Below, in pieces: positions 4,100-59,363 of a DNA stretch of 64,000 nucleotides. The notes beneath the pieces are model-generated. The model saw nothing but the letters and a program-made list of their open reading frames with translations, was not told the DNA's origin and did no database searches. The DNA comes from a virus, in IMG/VR virus record IMGVR_UViG_3300022843_000001, positions 1 to 64,000 of that record. The stretch is one strand, 5' to 3'. Every line of letters begins with the position of its first letter. Within the stretch, counting starts at the first letter, position 1. The position numbers were made by a program, and so were the translations under genes.

Positions 4100-5965
4100 T
4101 CAAAACGATCTTGTGTCTCCAACATAATCTTCGGCAAAATAATCACTTGCATAACCTTGATTATGTAAAGAACCTTCGTCTGAAGCAATCACATCTTCAA
4201 TATAAAGATTACCGGCTGTAATAGATACATTTTCAAATGCTGCCGTTGAATCTGAAAATTCTGTTGTAAATGATATAGATAAATTATCCGAGACAGGTTC
4301 GTCTTCATTTAAAGCAGTGGCATAATCCAAGAATAAAGTGTCTGTGGTGTTTGGTGTTTCGACAAACGATCTATTCGCGGCAAAAACGAATGTAGGTGTA
4401 TCAGCAACCGAAGAGTCGTCCAAAAATGATTTGCCAATATTCCAATTAAACTCTTCTGTTGGTTGCGAGGAATCGATTATTGATCTGTATGCATTAAATG
4501 TGACGTTAAAATTCTCGGATGCGTTCACACTTTCATTCGATGTTTTGTAATATTCCCAAGTAATGCCGTCAGGTACACCTATCAAATCTTCGACGCTAGC
4601 TTCGTCTTCTATTGATTTAAATATATCAAATTTCTGATCATCACTTGAAGAAAAAATGTCGGTAAATTGCTTTGTAGGCATCATGGACAATTGATCACTT
4701 GAAGAAAAAATGTCGGTAAATTGCTTTGTAGGCATCATGGACAATTGATCACTTGAAGAAAAAATGTCGGTAAATTGCTTTGTAGGCATCATGGACAATT
4801 GATCATCACTTGAAGAAAAAGAATCTGTTATTGATTTAAATATATCAAATTTCTGATCATCAGTTGAAGAAAAAATGTCGGTAAATTGCTTTGTAGGCAT
4901 CATGGACAATTGATCATCAGTTGTATAAAAAGAATCTGTTATTGATTTAAATATATCAAATTTCTGATCATCAGTTGTAGAAAAAGAATCTGTTATTGAT
5001 TTAAATATATCAAATTTCTGATCATCAGTTGAAGAAAAAATGTCGGTAAATTGCTTTGTAGGCATCATGGACAATTGATCACTTGAAGAAAAAGAATCTG
5101 TAAATGTTGTCCCATACGCCAAGGAAAGAAAATCCTCTAATCCATAACTATCATTAAACTCTCTTCTGAAATCTACAACCCGTTCAAAAACTTCAGAAGA
5201 AATTAAAGTGTCGCTTAATGCTTTTATAGAATCTACAATTATCAAATCAGATAAAGATTGGTAATCAATAAAAGGTTTTGTGGAAAGTATATGAACTACG
5301 CTTGCCGTAGAAACGTTGTCTATAAACGCAGTTTTATCTAAATATTTTGATATTAATTCTTCGGGTGCAATATAATCATTAAATATTCTATTAAAATCAA
5401 TTGACAGAGCAATTAAATCTTCGTTTGTTGTAAAATCCACAACAGGTTTGCTTAACAGAAGATCTGTGTTGTCCAACGATTCTAATGCGTCATTAAGATC
5501 TCTATTGAAATCCGCAACCAGAGTTATGTTGTCCGTGGCTTGTTGCGTCTCCGCAACAGACTTGATAAATTCAATTAATGATGAATCTTCGTTATTTGTC
5601 GAATCATTAAAGGACATGTTAAATGATAACGATAGAAGATCTGCCAAAGATACGGTATCAACTGGGGCCGACAATGACACATCAAATGATATAAACTCGG
5701 CCGTTAATATTGTTTCGTTAGGAGATCTTGCAAAGTCCGATATGTAACTAAATTCATCGGTAGGAGAACTTAATATATCTGTAAAGGCCTTTGTTGGTGT
5801 AAGACTAAATTTTTCATTAACAAATGTATCTTCGTCGATCAGATGAAAAGATCTTAGTACAGTACCGAGTACTGCAACACCCATAAAAGGTGTAAGATAA
5901 TCTACCTTTGATTTACCTACAAAGTTATCATAGGTGATCTTAATATCTGAAAACTTTTTAGTCAT
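4100..5965 (-). CDS. Repeat-rich Asp/Ser/Phe surface protein
   Basis: 621 residues, strongly acidic, no cysteine-rich or catalytic motif. It is built from degenerate units of about 18-25 residues ending in F(T/N)D.(F/L)SSxD, with a central block of near-identical copies such as DQLSMMPTKQFTDIFSSS and DDQKFDIFKSITDSFS. The extreme C-terminus YFAEDYVGDTRSF looks like a conserved tail tag. It sits among fibre genes, so it is probably a virion surface or fibre-associated protein. I know no assigned function for it. Confidence 0.7.
   Translation of the reverse strand: MTKKFSDIKITYDNFVGKSKVDYLTPFMGVAVLGTVLRSFHLIDEDTFVNEKFSLTPTKAFTDILSSPTDEFSYISDFARSPNETILTAEFISFDVSLSAPVDTVSLADLLSLSFNMSFNDSTNNEDSSLIEFIKSVAETQQATDNITLVADFNRDLNDALESLDNTDLLLSKPVVDFTTNEDLIALSIDFNRIFNDYIAPEELISKYLDKTAFIDNVSTASVVHILSTKPFIDYQSLSDLIIVDSIKALSDTLISSEVFERVVDFRREFNDSYGLEDFLSLAYGTTFTDSFSSSDQLSMMPTKQFTDIFSSTDDQKFDIFKSITDSFSTTDDQKFDIFKSITDSFYTTDDQLSMMPTKQFTDIFSSTDDQKFDIFKSITDSFSSSDDQLSMMPTKQFTDIFSSSDQLSMMPTKQFTDIFSSSDQLSMMPTKQFTDIFSSSDDQKFDIFKSIEDEASVEDLIGVPDGITWEYYKTSNESVNASENFNVTFNAYRSIIDSSQPTEEFNWNIGKSFLDDSSVADTPTFVFAANRSFVETPNTTDTLFLDYATALNEDEPVSDNLSISFTTEFSDSTAAFENVSITAGNLYIEDVIASDEGSLHNQGYASDYFAEDYVGDTRSF
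4620..5095 (-). repeat. 54-bp direct repeats within the acidic repeat protein
   Basis: At least five near-perfect copies of an 18-codon unit (DQLSMMPTKQFTDIFSSS) are interleaved with copies of a second unit (DDQKFDIFKSITDSFS). Identity at DNA level is almost complete, unlike the degenerate units in the rest of the gene, which suggests recent expansion by unequal recombination. Confidence 0.85.
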
Positions 5966-28499: not shown

Positions 28500-29327
28500 C
28501 TATAGTTTTAATGTCCAACCAGATCTGGTTTTATAATTAGGCCTGTTTAAAATTCTGCTAATCTGCCATTCCGATAGATTTAAATCTGCTACCATCTTCG
28601 CTCTAGTGCCAGAAAATGAGGCACCCGATATATTGATTAATGTGTATATCTCTTCTGCTCTGCGCGCTATATACGCGATTCTGGCCATTGACATCTTTTG
28701 TCTGGTTTCCTCTGATGCTTTTTTACCTTTCGATGCTATTGACATATTGCGCTTGGCTTCCTCAGAATGTCTTTTACCAGTTCTCGTTATCGACATTTTC
28801 CGTTTAGTTTCGTCTGACATATTTAACGCAGCAGTCCTCATACGAGCTTTTGTTTCGTCTGACTTGGCGTGGTGTAAACGCGCTTTTGTTTCGTCGGACA
28901 TATTTAACTTAGCAATTCTCATACGAGCTTTTGTTTCGTCTGATCGCTTTCTACCTGTCCTTGATAATGACAGCTTTCTTTTATGTTCCACGGACTGAGG
29001 TGTGCCCAAGGTATTAAACCCCGATGCAGTTGCTTTAGATCTATTATAAAATAAAGGATTTCTTGATACATTATGATCATTATGAAGATCTATTTCATTC
29101 TGGGAAGCTTCGTCTCTCGTATCAAATATTGAAATGATGATCTTTTCGAAAGATAACATACCTTGTATTGATATGGACTCATCAAGATATTTTGAAGAAC
29201 CCATATATGGATCATCTTCAGGTAAACATTTACAAGATCTGACACCGATGTAATATCGACATCTATCTGTGGGATGCAAATTAGTTATTAGATAGGTGTA
29301 GTGATAGGTATAAATAGAATTATGCAT
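28500..29327 (-). CDS. GIY-YIG homing endonuclease with NUMOD3 repeats
   Basis: 275 residues. N-terminal GIY-YIG-type nuclease: TYLITN...YYIGVRSC, then DPYMGSSKYLDESI. From about residue 110 there are six or more NUMOD3 units (SDETKARMRIAKLNM, SEEAKRNMSIASKGK and similar) and a C-terminal helix-turn-helix-like part (ISGASFSGTRAKMVADLNLSEWQISRILN). Such enzymes cut intronless or related alleles and spread their own gene. It is inserted on the opposite strand between plus-strand late genes. No intron is visible around it, so it is free-standing. Confidence 0.9.
   Translation of the reverse strand: MHNSIYTYHYTYLITNLHPTDRCRYYIGVRSCKCLPEDDPYMGSSKYLDESISIQGMLSFEKIIISIFDTRDEASQNEIDLHNDHNVSRNPLFYNRSKATASGFNTLGTPQSVEHKRKLSLSRTGRKRSDETKARMRIAKLNMSDETKARLHHAKSDETKARMRTAALNMSDETKRKMSITRTGKRHSEEAKRNMSIASKGKKASEETRQKMSMARIAYIARRAEEIYTLINISGASFSGTRAKMVADLNLSEWQISRILNRPNYKTRSGWTLKL
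29309..29316 (+). promoter_or_regulatory. Possible late promoter box TATAAATA
   Basis: Plus-strand TATAAATA inside the first codons of the opposite-strand endonuclease, 132 nt upstream of the next plus gene, with a strong hairpin in between. Weak candidate. Confidence 0.3.
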
Positions 29328-30764: not shown

Positions 30765-31472
30765 ATGGCTTTACCAGTAATTACAGCACCAAAATACCAA
30801 TTGACAATACCGTCTACAGGTAAGAATATTGAATACAGACCATATTTGGTAAAAGAAGAAAAGATTTTAGTTCTGGCTCTTGAGTCTGAGAATTCTAATC
30901 AAATGATTAGAGCAATACGGGACATTATTAATATTTGCACCTTTAAAAATGTAGATGCAAACACACTCACAATATTTGATCTTGAATTTGTGTTTTTAAA
31001 ATTAAGAGCAGTGTCGGTAGGTGGTAGTACTTCTCTAAAGATAAAATGTGTTGACTGTGAATCATACACTGAAATAGATCTCAACCTCGATCATGTTAAA
31101 ATAAAAGGCGAAATGAAATCTGATGTAAAAATTCAACTCAACGATGATGTTGGCGTTATCATGAGATATCCAACAGTAAAAGGCACACTACTTGGTGCTA
31201 ATACCGCAGACACAGATGATTACTCTACAGCAATATCAACTATAGCCTCATGCATAGAGACCATTTATGATGCCGAGAATACTCACAGTGCGGATGCATC
31301 AACAAAAGAAGAACTTATTGATTTTATAGAATCGTTAAGTCAAGAACAATTTGCAAAAATTAACACATTTTTTAATGATATGCCTACATTGTCTCATGAT
31401 GTAGATTTTGATTGTAAATCATGTGGTACAAATAAGACAACTACGATTAAAGGCCTTCAGAGTTTTTTCTGA
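30765..31472 (+). CDS. gp26: Baseplate hub assembly protein gp26 (zero frame)
   Basis: 235 residues of the T4 gp26-type baseplate family: MALPVITAPKYQLTIPSTGKNIEYRPYLVKEEKILVLALES is the diagnostic start. Two CxxC pairs (C95/C98 and C217/C220) suggest a zinc site. It ends ...GLQSFF then TGA. The last codons form the heptamer T TTT TTC in the correct phase for -1 slippage, and the -1 frame continues straight into a gp51-like sequence. GAGGATAT ribosome site before the ATG. Confidence 0.9.
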   Translation: MALPVITAPKYQLTIPSTGKNIEYRPYLVKEEKILVLALESENSNQMIRAIRDIINICTFKNVDANTLTIFDLEFVFLKLRAVSVGGSTSLKIKCVDCESYTEIDLNLDHVKIKGEMKSDVKIQLNDDVGVIMRYPTVKGTLLGANTADTDDYSTAISTIASCIETIYDAENTHSADASTKEELIDFIESLSQEQFAKINTFFNDMPTLSHDVDFDCKSCGTNKTTTIKGLQSFF

Positions 31473-31657
31473 TAGCCCTTTCTCATGAATCGTTAGTATC
31501 TTTATATAAAACAAATTTTGCTTTAATGCAACACCACAATTATGCATTAAGTGATCTAGATAATATGATACCATGGGAAAGGGAGATATATGTCACAATG
31601 CTTGCGGCACATATCGAAGCAGAAAATGAACGAATCGAAAAGGAAAATAGAAAATAA
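31463..31657 (+). CDS. gp51: gp51-like extension made by a likely -1 frameshift from gp26
   Basis: The slippery sequence TTTTTTC (31463-31469) ends one base before the gp26 stop. After a -1 shift, translation continues from 31469 for 62 codons: LIALSHESLVSLYKTNF, then ALMQHHNYALSDLDNMIPWE, REIYVTML and an acidic-basic end, closing at TAA 31655-31657, which overlaps the next ATG (TAATG). This C-terminal sequence is gp51-like. There is no good in-frame ATG with a ribosome site at the start, which favours frameshifting over independent initiation. The fusion would be about 297 residues, parallel to the G/GT tail chaperones upstream of tape-measure genes in other phages. Confidence 0.75.
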   Translation, partial: FFLIALSHESLVSLYKTNFALMQHHNYALSDLDNMIPWEREIYVTMLAAHIEAENERIEKENRK

Positions 31658-31944
31658 TGTCAATGCAAGATATGGACAATGACGGTAAAATTTCAAGCAA
31701 TGATCTTGAGTTAAATAAGATCATGCAAGAATTGGATAGAGCTGAAGAAAAAGCAAACGCGCAGATGATGATGGCGTGGATTGCTTTGATCATGACTGTG
31801 TTCTTCACGGGTATGCTTTTTACTCCTATTATATCAACTGACCGCATTGCCGCATTATCAAATGTTCTTGATTGGTTTTATATAACTCAGGCATCCATCG
31901 TGTGTGGATTTATGGGCGTTACTGCCTATGCAAATAGGAAATAG
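31657..31944 (+). CDS. Small membrane protein with EF-hand-like loop
   Basis: 95 residues. The N-terminus has DMDNDGKISSND, which fits the 12-residue EF-hand/dockerin calcium loop (D1, D3, D5, G6, I8, D12). Then a helical segment and two transmembrane stretches (WIALIMTVFFTGMLFTPII and ASIVCGFMGVTAY). It starts on the stop of the gp51 frame (TAATG) and ends 2 nt before the tape measure. A membrane protein in the tail chaperone/tape-measure cassette is unusual; it might act in infection or assembly at the membrane. Function unknown. Confidence 0.8.
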   Translation: MSMQDMDNDGKISSNDLELNKIMQELDRAEEKANAQMMMAWIALIMTVFFTGMLFTPIISTDRIAALSNVLDWFYITQASIVCGFMGVTAYANRK

Positions 31945-31946
31945 AC

Positions 31947-33707
31947 ATGGCAGAATCAACATTAAAAGACATTTCAAAACAACTTGCTGAAGAAGGATCT
32001 CATAACAGAGAATCTTTAGAGTCCGTTAAAGAAGTAATTATGAAAAGCGCGGCCGCTACGTCTTTGGGCCCGTCCGCAAGTTCTCGCGCTATAAATGCAT
32101 TTATTACGGGTATGAAGCAGGACAACCTTGCCAACATCGAAAGAGCAAATGAATCTGCCAGAAGAGCAGAAGCTGTAGAAGATGCAGTTAAGGAGAACAC
32201 AAAAACATTATCTGAGGAAATTTCAAACATTGACACATCTTTTGATTTGGGGTTTGCCATTCCTACATTAATTGCAGGTATACTTGGTACACTAGTCGGC
32301 GTGTTGTCTGGCGCTCTTATAGGTGGAATATTAGGTGCATTTAAGGAAGCAAAGCTTTGGGGCAAACTTATAGACAAATTAACGGGTGGTGTTATTTCAA
32401 GAATGCTCGCTGCTTTTAAGATTCAAAACATTCGAATGGTGTTTATGGGTCAGATGGGCAAAATATCTACGGCACTTGGAAACGTTGGCGCTACTCTTAC
32501 TTCCATTGTAGATAAATTTAAAACCTTTGGTGCTAGCATAAAAGCATCTATAGGTAATAGCAAAATTGCAAAGTTTATTATGGGTGTCGGTGATTTTATA
32601 ACAAAACAAGCAACTGAAATTAAAAACACATTTGTAATAGCCAAGACTGCTATTACTGGATTATTTTCTGGCATTGGTGGCGGTGGTGGTGGCGGTATTT
32701 TCTCCACGATAAGCAAAGGCTTTGGTGTAGTAACAAAATTTCTTGGTGGTTTTGCCTCTTTGTTCAGTGGCATAGGAACAGTTGCAGGAAAAGTTGCAGG
32801 TTTTGTAGGCAAGATATTTTTACCTTTACGTGCTGTTATGGTATTATTTGATACAGTAATGGGTGCCTGGGATGGGTTTCAAAAAGAAGGTATACTTGGA
32901 GGCATCAAAGGAGCAATAAAAGGTTTGTTTAAAGGTTTAATTGGAAGTGTATTAGACTTAGTAAAAGACGGCATTTCTTGGGTTGCTGAAAAGTTTGGAT
33001 TTGGTGAGATTTCCGCAAGCTTGGATAGTTTTAGTTTTAGCGAGGAATTCGATAAAATTATAGACGCGGTTTTTGCCGTTGTTGGAGATGCTTTTAAATG
33101 GATATCTGGTATATTTAGCGGAGTTAGTAAATCCTTTATGGGTGCCGTTGATTCCTTTGTTGCATTTGATACAACAAAATTTCTGGCAGATATGGGTGCC
33201 AGTATTATGTCTGTTGTTAATAAACTTGTGGATAATGTTATTGGATTATTTAAAGGGTCGGGTAGCGCAATAATGGATGCAGTTGGTAACATCGGTGATA
33301 TGTATAGAAATTTTTATGCATCTATACTTAGATTTATATTACCAACCCCTAACGCAAATGCAGAATGGTACGACATTGGCAATCTTATATCAAAGGTAAT
33401 ACCAGAAAGTGTTTATAAGTTTGCAGGTCTAGACAAAACTACGGGAGAAAGAGTACCGATGGAAAGTATTATGGATATGGTACTTCCTAATACAGACATG
33501 GTACCTTCTCAGATTGCTGGAGATACAGTATCAACATTGTCAAGAAGCATGGCAAGCCAACAAGCACCGATTGTTGTCATAGAAGGATCTAAGGGTGCTA
33601 AGGCAGGCGATAATAATAGTGATAACAGCATCAACTCTTTTTATGGTTCTAGTGCTGCTTCGACAGGTAAGAATTTTACAGGGCGATCTTTAAACAGAAA
33701 ATACTAA
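31947..33707 (+). CDS. gp29: Tape measure / baseplate hub protein, gp29-like
   Basis: 586 residues, nearly the length of T4 gp29 (590). Helical N-terminus with charged heptads, then long small-residue hydrophobic segments (TLIAGILGTLVGVLSGALIGGILGA; VTKFLGGFASLFSGIGTVAGKV region) typical of tape-measure proteins. It follows the gp26/gp51 chaperone pair as expected. It sets tail length and enters the cell with DNA. Its stop overlaps the stop of the convergent endolysin gene. Confidence 0.82.
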   Translation: MAESTLKDISKQLAEEGSHNRESLESVKEVIMKSAAATSLGPSASSRAINAFITGMKQDNLANIERANESARRAEAVEDAVKENTKTLSEEISNIDTSFDLGFAIPTLIAGILGTLVGVLSGALIGGILGAFKEAKLWGKLIDKLTGGVISRMLAAFKIQNIRMVFMGQMGKISTALGNVGATLTSIVDKFKTFGASIKASIGNSKIAKFIMGVGDFITKQATEIKNTFVIAKTAITGLFSGIGGGGGGGIFSTISKGFGVVTKFLGGFASLFSGIGTVAGKVAGFVGKIFLPLRAVMVLFDTVMGAWDGFQKEGILGGIKGAIKGLFKGLIGSVLDLVKDGISWVAEKFGFGEISASLDSFSFSEEFDKIIDAVFAVVGDAFKWISGIFSGVSKSFMGAVDSFVAFDTTKFLADMGASIMSVVNKLVDNVIGLFKGSGSAIMDAVGNIGDMYRNFYASILRFILPTPNANAEWYDIGNLISKVIPESVYKFAGLDKTTGERVPMESIMDMVLPNTDMVPSQIAGDTVSTLSRSMASQQAPIVVIEGSKGAKAGDNNSDNSINSFYGSSAASTGKNFTGRSLNRKY

Positions 33708-57890: not shown

Positions 57891-58409
57891 TTATAACATT
57901 TCTCTAGCTTGAGCGAGCAAAACAGAATCTGCCTTGGTCAATACATCCAGAAGCAATGCTTTTTCTTTCAAATAAACCTTTGCAAACTTGGGATCGTGTT
58001 CGATAATAGAAACACTGTTGTCTATCAAATCTGCGACCTTGATGTTATGTACATCAGCACTTGCGGCACCTAATCTTTCTCGGTCCATCTTCTTTCTAGC
58101 CGCCCTGTTAGGACTCACACCTTCGATAAATGGGTCATCAGACAATGCTTTGATCATATCATGTACCCTAGTACCAAATTCTTCTTGAATCATATCCAAG
58201 GTGACCTCAGTATCTTCAACTGTGTCGTGCAAGAAAGCAGCAGCGATTACATGTTCATCCGTGATACCTACCGAACGTAATGTCAGCGCTACATTAACCG
58301 GATGAAAGATATAAGGCTCTCCTGTGTATTTTCTTTTATGATATATGTCGCCGTGATATTTCCACGCGAACCAATATGCTTTTTCTGTTAGTGCAGTAGT
58401 AGTTGTCAT
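57891..58409 (-). CDS. SpoT-like HD-domain hydrolase (paralogue 3)
   Basis: 172 residues. GEPYIFH36PVNVALTL, AAFLH61DTVED66TEVTLDMIQEEFG and KVADLIDN are the closest of the three to bacterial SpoT/MESH1 hydrolases. Own promoter. Expected to hydrolyse (p)ppGpp or a related nucleotide. Confidence 0.9.
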   Translation of the reverse strand: MTTTTALTEKAYWFAWKYHGDIYHKRKYTGEPYIFHPVNVALTLRSVGITDEHVIAAAFLHDTVEDTEVTLDMIQEEFGTRVHDMIKALSDDPFIEGVSPNRAARKKMDRERLGAASADVHNIKVADLIDNSVSIIEHDPKFAKVYLKEKALLLDVLTKADSVLLAQAREML

Positions 58410-59046: not shown

Positions 59047-59363
59047 AAGTATCTAGCTCCATATACGTCCCAAGCAGTAACACAACCTTCATTTTCGTCA
59101 AAGACGTTTCCACGAACACCTTTAGCAGGGGCTTTCCAAGACGCGGCTTTAAGTATATCTCCATTCTCCAAATTCACAAAAGAGTGCACAGATTCGGGAT
59201 TAAATGTGTTGGGTTTACATTTGATAATCTTCGCGTATTTTTTGCCGTAAGATACATCAATATTAAAAACACCTATATCATATTTCATATTCACATAATG
59301 TTCAGCGGTGTGTTTTTCTAAAGTAATTCGCATTTTCTCGATCTGTTCTTTGACTGTATTCAT
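59043..59363 (-). CDS. Conserved phage protein (106 aa)
   Basis: KYAKIIKCKPN...SVHSFVNLENGDILKAASWKAPAKGVRGNVFDENEGCVTAWDVYGARYL. The VHSFV..NGDILKAASWKAPAKxxRGN block recurs in many phages. Function unknown. Conserved early leader in front. Confidence 0.75.
   Translation of the reverse strand: MNTVKEQIEKMRITLEKHTAEHYVNMKYDIGVFNIDVSYGKKYAKIIKCKPNTFNPESVHSFVNLENGDILKAASWKAPAKGVRGNVFDENEGCVTAWDVYGARYL

What the first reader, a model, noticed from the sequence alone, without database searches (positions are those of the whole stretch)
31463..31657. Likely programmed -1 frameshift fusing gp26 and gp51
A phased slippery heptamer T TTT TTC ends one base before the gp26 stop, and the -1 frame reads a 62-residue gp51-like chain directly, with no separate ribosome site. 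The pair lies just before the tape measure, as the frameshifting G/GT chaperones do in other tailed phages. In T4 gp26 and gp51 are separate genes, so this would link them to the tail-chaperone frameshift family.
Basis: partly seen in the sequence, partly recalled or inferred. Interest (0 to 1): 0.7.

Follow-up and report, generated by a model that had tools for sequence, protein, structure and literature searches.

The report
Frameshift making a phage tail chaperone
In this T4-related phage the ribosome very probably slips back one base at the end of gene 26, so that a few copies of the tail-assembly chaperone carry the 'gp51' domain as an extra tail; the slip site, and an RNA stem just after it, are conserved across distant relatives, while T4 itself uses two separate genes instead.

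Summary
An in-phase T TTT TTC heptamer (31463-31469) abuts the gp26 stop, and the -1 frame reads 62 gp51 residues. Of 155 non-redundant relatives, 153 carry an in-phase T TTT TTN heptamer near the gp26 stop, and gp51, where detected, always lies in the -1 frame. The codon before the Phe pair changes amino acid but always ends in T, and the first Phe is always TTT; synonymous codon use alone would not give this. The -1 frame is under purifying selection before the usual first possible gp51 start codon.

Its synonymous third positions covary across the family. Some relatives without it have a local hairpin there, and an SD-like GAGG upstream is enriched.

T4 has lost the heptamer. Its 249-aa gp51 is the whole long form as a separate gene, so cyanophage 'short gp51' is the frameshifted domain. 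Best reading: -1 programmed frameshifting makes TAC-N (gp26) and TAC-NC (gp26-gp51). Frameshifting in T4-like chaperone genes is already reported, so this is a new member of a known kind; I found no description of the stem. No expression data were available.

The parts
30765..31472 (+). gp26 = short chaperone form (TAC-N), 235 aa, with two CxxC pairs (zinc-ribbon-like)
   Evidence: PF12322 T4_baseplate E=2.6e-62; phrog_150 E=9.6e-64; AlphaFold2 mean pLDDT 93
31449..31453 (+). AAAGG, the window's weak version of the SD-like GAGG seen 10-14 nt upstream of the heptamer in relatives
   Evidence: GAG over GAA at this codon 48:28 against 24% GAG background, p=8e-13, across the family; the window itself has AAA
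31463..31469 (+). slippery heptamer T TTT TTC, in phase
   Evidence: conserved in 153 of 155 non-redundant relatives
31470..31475 (+). tandem zero-frame stops TGA TAG, which are also the 6-nt spacer between heptamer and stem
31469..31657 (+). -1 frame extension, 62 residues, the gp51 C-terminal domain of the long form (TAC-NC, 297 aa in all)
   Evidence: phrog_634 E=3.7e-26; pN/pS 0.20 in the -1 frame before the usual first start codon
31476..31487 (+). 5' arm of the stimulatory RNA stem (CCCTTTCTCATG)
   Evidence: fold z=-4.3; covariation
31572..31583 (+). 3' arm of the stimulatory RNA stem (CATGGGAAAGGG), inside the codons for PWERE
   Evidence: fold z=-4.3; covariation
31657..31944 (+). 95-aa membrane-like ORF with an EF-hand-like DxDxDG, between chaperone and tape measure; conserved in place in phage Melnitz
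   Evidence: E=9e-9 to L022:4911-5237
31947..33707 (+). probable tape measure protein, 586 aa
   Evidence: weak tape-measure profile hits; E=9e-18 to the gene in the same place in Melnitz; position as in Cr30

Best explanation
A programmed -1 ribosomal frameshift. Ribosomes translating gp26 reach T TTT TTC; most terminate at the adjacent TGA and release the 235-aa short chaperone. A fraction, paused by the RNA stem 6 nt downstream, slip back one base (both Phe tRNAs re-pair on UUU UUU) and read 62 more residues, giving a 297-aa gp26-gp51 fusion. Shown here: the phased heptamer, its conservation beyond amino-acid constraint, protein-type selection in the -1 frame before the usual first start codon, and a covarying stem. 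Inferred: the slip itself, its efficiency, and that the two forms act on the tape measure and tail tube as lambda G and GT do.
For: Heptamer in 153 of 155 non-redundant relatives; gp51 in the -1 frame in all 181 loci where it was detected. X-site codon always NNT although the residue is D, S, N, A, F or G (92 of 153 expected from synonymous usage); first Phe always TTT (105 of 153 expected). The -1 frame has pN/pS 0.20 over the codons before the usual first ATG; the other frames give 1.6-1.7. Downstream folding energy z=-3.1 on average against synonymous-codon shuffles, control stretch -0.3. Long-range runs of 9 or more pairs: 44 seen, 3.1 expected. Third-position pairs covary (Fisher 6e-13 and 4e-13; crossed pairs 0.39 and 1.0; 11 of 15 and 12 of 15 tree-independent contrasts compensated, 0 opposed). 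Only one gp26-like gene in the 198,785-bp record. T4 has GAG TTC TTT instead of the heptamer, and its separate gp51 matches both the gp26 and the gp51 profile.
Against: No ribosome profiling, proteomics or reporter data. Two relatives (Serratia 2050H1, Ackermannviridae; Vibrio K474, similar) keep the -1 arrangement without the heptamer. The stem is not universal, and the window's stem alone is reached by 0.9% of synonymous shuffles. The record may be a fragment, so a separate long form elsewhere in the virus is not strictly excluded.
Confidence: 0.94

Rival explanations
1. Gp51 is made separately, by re-initiation or coupling from a start codon in the -1 frame (ATG 31526 in the window), as database annotations assume.
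For: Annotators call gp51 as a separate CDS in S-ShM2, Cr30, P-SSM2 and others, and about a fifth of relatives have a start codon within the first five -1 codons.
Against: In most relatives the first start codon lies 8 or more codons after the heptamer, most often at codon 18-19, and the codons before it are under purifying selection in the -1 frame. Re-initiation would not need the T TTT TTN codons or the stem. The window ATG has no SD.
Confidence: 0.04
2. Transcriptional slippage on the T run produces a mixed mRNA population.
For: A run of six T (up to eight in some relatives).
Against: Six T is short for RNA polymerase slippage (general knowledge). Many relatives end the run at six with C or A as the seventh base. 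Codon phasing and a stem a few nucleotides downstream are signatures of ribosomal slippage.
Confidence: 0.015
3. A sequencing error or a pseudogene split one fused gene.
For: Relatives such as T4 have a single-frame long form.
Against: The same -1 arrangement occurs in every one of 181 loci, cultured phages included.
Confidence: 0.005

Closest known systems
Lambda G/GT and P2 E/E+E' tail assembly chaperone frameshifts (TAC-N / TAC-NC)
   Same: First ORF ends near a slippery heptamer, second ORF in the -1 frame gives a minor C-terminally extended chaperone, just upstream of the tape measure.
   Different: No sequence relation shown here; gp26 has zinc-ribbon-like Cys pairs; a weak fold resemblance to the HK97 chaperone 2ob9 is not significant (E=4.4, TM 0.38 to target); a small membrane-like ORF lies between chaperone and tape measure.
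T4 gp26 and gp51 (Straboviridae, Tevenvirinae)
   Same: T4 gp26 is homologous to the short form; T4 gp51 is homologous to short form plus C-terminal domain (gp26 profile 2e-9, gp51 profile 1e-10).
   Different: T4 makes them from two separate, divergent genes and lacks the heptamer (GAG TTC TTT); the window phage has one gene and a frameshift.
T4-like TAC-N genes with poly-T -1 signals (Vladimirov et al. 2022, Virology 566:9-15, cited in PMC12846349 and PMC10885494)
   Same: T4-like chaperone genes and, according to PMC12846349, poly-T frameshift signals.
   Different: Original paper not held here; I could not check whether it covers this clade, the stem, the SD-like element or the short 'gp51' explanation.
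Vandenendeviridae/Andersonviridae chaperone frameshift with a GTTTTT motif (phage Adele, PMC12846349)
   Same: Poly-T -1 frameshift at the end of TAC-N before the tape measure.
   Different: Other phage families; motif GTTTTT rather than T TTT TTN; no stem reported in the passages read.

Membership tests
Programmed -1 ribosomal frameshift signal (X XXY YYZ type) | In-phase X XXY YYZ heptamer in the overlap of two ORFs | tested here: met
Programmed -1 ribosomal frameshift signal (X XXY YYZ type) | Heptamer conserved beyond amino-acid constraint | tested here: met
   NNT and TTT invariant against synonymous expectation
Programmed -1 ribosomal frameshift signal (X XXY YYZ type) | Stimulatory structure about 5-9 nt downstream | tested here: met
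   window spacer 6 nt, 12 bp; predicted and covarying, not probed
Programmed -1 ribosomal frameshift signal (X XXY YYZ type) | Measured frameshift product | not testable with these tools
   needs reporter, ribosome profiling or proteomics
Long-tailed-phage tail assembly chaperones (G/GT type) | Short form plus C-terminally extended form from a frameshift (or its replacement) | tested here: met
   (gene architecture only)
Long-tailed-phage tail assembly chaperones (G/GT type) | Encoded directly upstream of the tape measure | tested here: met
   one 95-aa ORF in between; the tape-measure assignment itself is weak by profile
Long-tailed-phage tail assembly chaperones (G/GT type) | Chaperone fold shared with solved TACs (e.g. 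HK97, 2ob9) | tested here: inconclusive
   2ob9_B rank 29, E=4.4, TMt 0.38, rmsd 3.2 over 53 columns
Long-tailed-phage tail assembly chaperones (G/GT type) | Binds tape measure and tail tube, absent from the virion | not testable with these tools
   biochemistry needed
T4 gp26/gp51 protein family (PF12322, phrog_150, phrog_634) | Sequence homology over the domain | tested here: met

The most novel reading that the evidence does not exclude
A previously undescribed stimulatory RNA element, in many relatives a stem whose arms are about 84 nt apart inside the gp51 codons and in others a local hairpin at the same spot, tunes the chaperone ratio across the T4 superfamily; loss of the heptamer and gene duplication replaced this frameshift in the T4 branch.
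Probability: 0.55. Interest if true: 0.6.

Novelty: new member of a known kind. Interest (0 to 1): 0.5.

Why it matters
A 2010 comparison of 26 T4-like genomes noted that cyanophage gp51 is only about 20% of the usual length and that gp51 is missing from Aeh1 (PMC3037559). Frameshifting explains both: the short gp51 is the C-terminal domain of a gp26-gp51 fusion, and Aeh1 has it unannotated in the -1 frame behind a T TTT TTC site. It joins the 'baseplate hub' proteins gp26/gp51 to the tape-measure chaperones of other long-tailed phages, and T4 offers a natural comparison in which two genes do what a frameshift does elsewhere. It also means that gp51 is mis-annotated or missed in many marine phage genomes.

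Tried and rejected
Rfam match for the junction RNA: none above gathering score. Sequence search of solved structures with the gp26 profile: no relative. Foldseek against PDB: nothing significant; HK97 chaperone only as a weak lead. A profile from six very divergent gp26s was too diverse for the search for related loci. Direct blastp of the 586-aa ORF against the Cr30 tape measure: not significant. A second in-phase TTTTTTG near a stop at 59238 lies in a spurious ORF antisense to another gene. A local hairpin directly after the heptamer in the window: absent (z near 0 for the first 60-90 nt); the window uses the long-range stem. The original Vladimirov 2022 paper is not held, so its scope is taken second hand.

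Full report
Observation. Gp26 (30765-31472) ends AGT TTT TTC TGA TAG; T TTT TTC at 31463-31469 is an in-phase X XXY YYZ heptamer touching the stop. The -1 frame runs on to 31657 and encodes 62 residues with a clear gp51 profile match (phrog_634, 3.7e-26); the gp26 profile phrog_150 itself extends into them, which suggests that some family members are fused. The first -1-frame start codon is ATG 31526, 19 codons on, without an SD.

Conservation. I collected 184 gp26 junctions from IMG/VR contigs and cultured phages, 155 of them less than 80% identical. In all 181 with a detectable gp51 the second frame is -1, and 153 of 155 have T TTT TTN in phase, mostly 0-1 codons before the stop. Hosts of the cultured members range from Synechococcus, Prochlorococcus, Pelagibacter and Methylophilales to Caulobacter, Rhizobium, Vibrio, Aeromonas, Cronobacter, Stenotrophomonas and Nitratidesulfovibrio, with G+C of the gene from 25 to 55%. 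The X-site codon varies in amino acid but is always NNT, and the first Phe is always TTT: log10 P of -37 and -28 under each gene's own synonymous usage if loci were independent; at 40% clustering -6.4 and -6.9. An SD-like GAGG about 10 nt upstream is enriched through GAG over GAA (p=8e-13); the window has only AAAGG.

Translation of the -1 frame. Among 24 disjoint pairs of relatives the -1 frame has pN/pS 0.20 over codons 2-17 after the slip site, before the usual first ATG; the other two frames give 1.6-1.7. This stretch is therefore translated as protein, which a gp51 starting at that ATG could not explain.

Stimulatory RNA. The window folds into a 12-bp stem 6 nt after the heptamer, 31476-31487 with 31572-31583 (whole fold z=-4.3). 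On its own, 0.9% of synonymous shuffles reach 12 pairs, so the family evidence is what counts: mean folding z of -3.1 against synonymous shuffles with 72% below -2, control stretch -0.3; runs of 9 or more pairs in 44 loci against 3.1 expected, and strong local hairpins at the same place in 26 against 7.3 expected. Loci with one tend not to have the other (p=0.002). Two pairs of synonymous third positions, about 100 nt apart, covary strongly in the unselected set while crossed pairs do not, and tip pairs on a gp26 tree show 11 of 15 and 12 of 15 compensated and none opposed. The tool count on alignment A5 agrees, but A5 was preselected for loci with the stem. No Rfam family covers it.

T4 as the exception. 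T4 gene 26 ends GAG TTC TTT GAG TTA CTA TAA: Phe-Phe kept, heptamer gone. T4 gp51 is a separate, divergent gene whose 249 residues match both profiles. The same two-gene state is seen in Tulanevirus, an Acinetobacter phage and Pseudotevenvirus, whereas Aeh1, phage 65, AS-yj, S13 and nt-1, also Straboviridae, keep the frameshift. So within Straboviridae the frameshift seems to have been replaced by two genes; the direction is inferred from the wide spread of the frameshift outside. This accounts for the 'short' cyanophage gp51 and the 'missing' Aeh1 gp51 of Sullivan et al. (PMC3037559).

Prior art. PMC10885494 and PMC12846349 cite Vladimirov, Gautam and Davidson 2022 for the tail assembly chaperones of T4-like phages, for some T4-like phages using a separate long gene instead of a frameshift, and for poly-T frameshift signals in T4-like TAC-N genes. 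That paper was not available. I therefore file the finding as a new member of a known kind. The stem may be new.

Limits. Function as a chaperone pair is inferred from gene order and T4 genetics (T4 gp26 and gp51 are listed as hub assembly chaperones in PMC3004832). The fold comparison with solved chaperones was inconclusive. Nothing here measures frameshifting.

Noticed in passing
window 28500-29327 (-): A 275-aa ORF with a GIY-YIG-like start (YTYLITNLHPTDRCRYYIGVRSC) and repeated SDETKARMR motifs, probably a homing endonuclease, sits inside the tail gene cluster between gp4 and gp2.
   Followed up: no
window 31657-31944 (+): A 95-aa membrane-like protein with an EF-hand-like DMDNDGKISSNDLE lies between gp51 and the tape measure; a relative holds the same place in Methylophilales phage Melnitz (E=9e-9).
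   Followed up: partly
window 57891-58409 (-): A 172-aa protein that looks like a RelA/SpoT-type HD hydrolase (YHGDIYHKRKYTGEPYIFHPVNVA), a possible ppGpp hydrolase carried by the phage.
   Followed up: no
L180 around 4750-4762 and L183 around 4705-4722: Serratia 2050H1 and Vibrio K474 keep the -1 gp26/gp51 arrangement but have GTT TTC and CTT TTT instead of the T TTT TTN heptamer, so they may slip on a weaker site.
   Followed up: partly
L017 about 4760-4840: Nitratidesulfovibrio phage SRB7757 has an unusually strong fold (z=-9 against synonymous shuffles) 60-130 nt after its heptamer.
   Followed up: no
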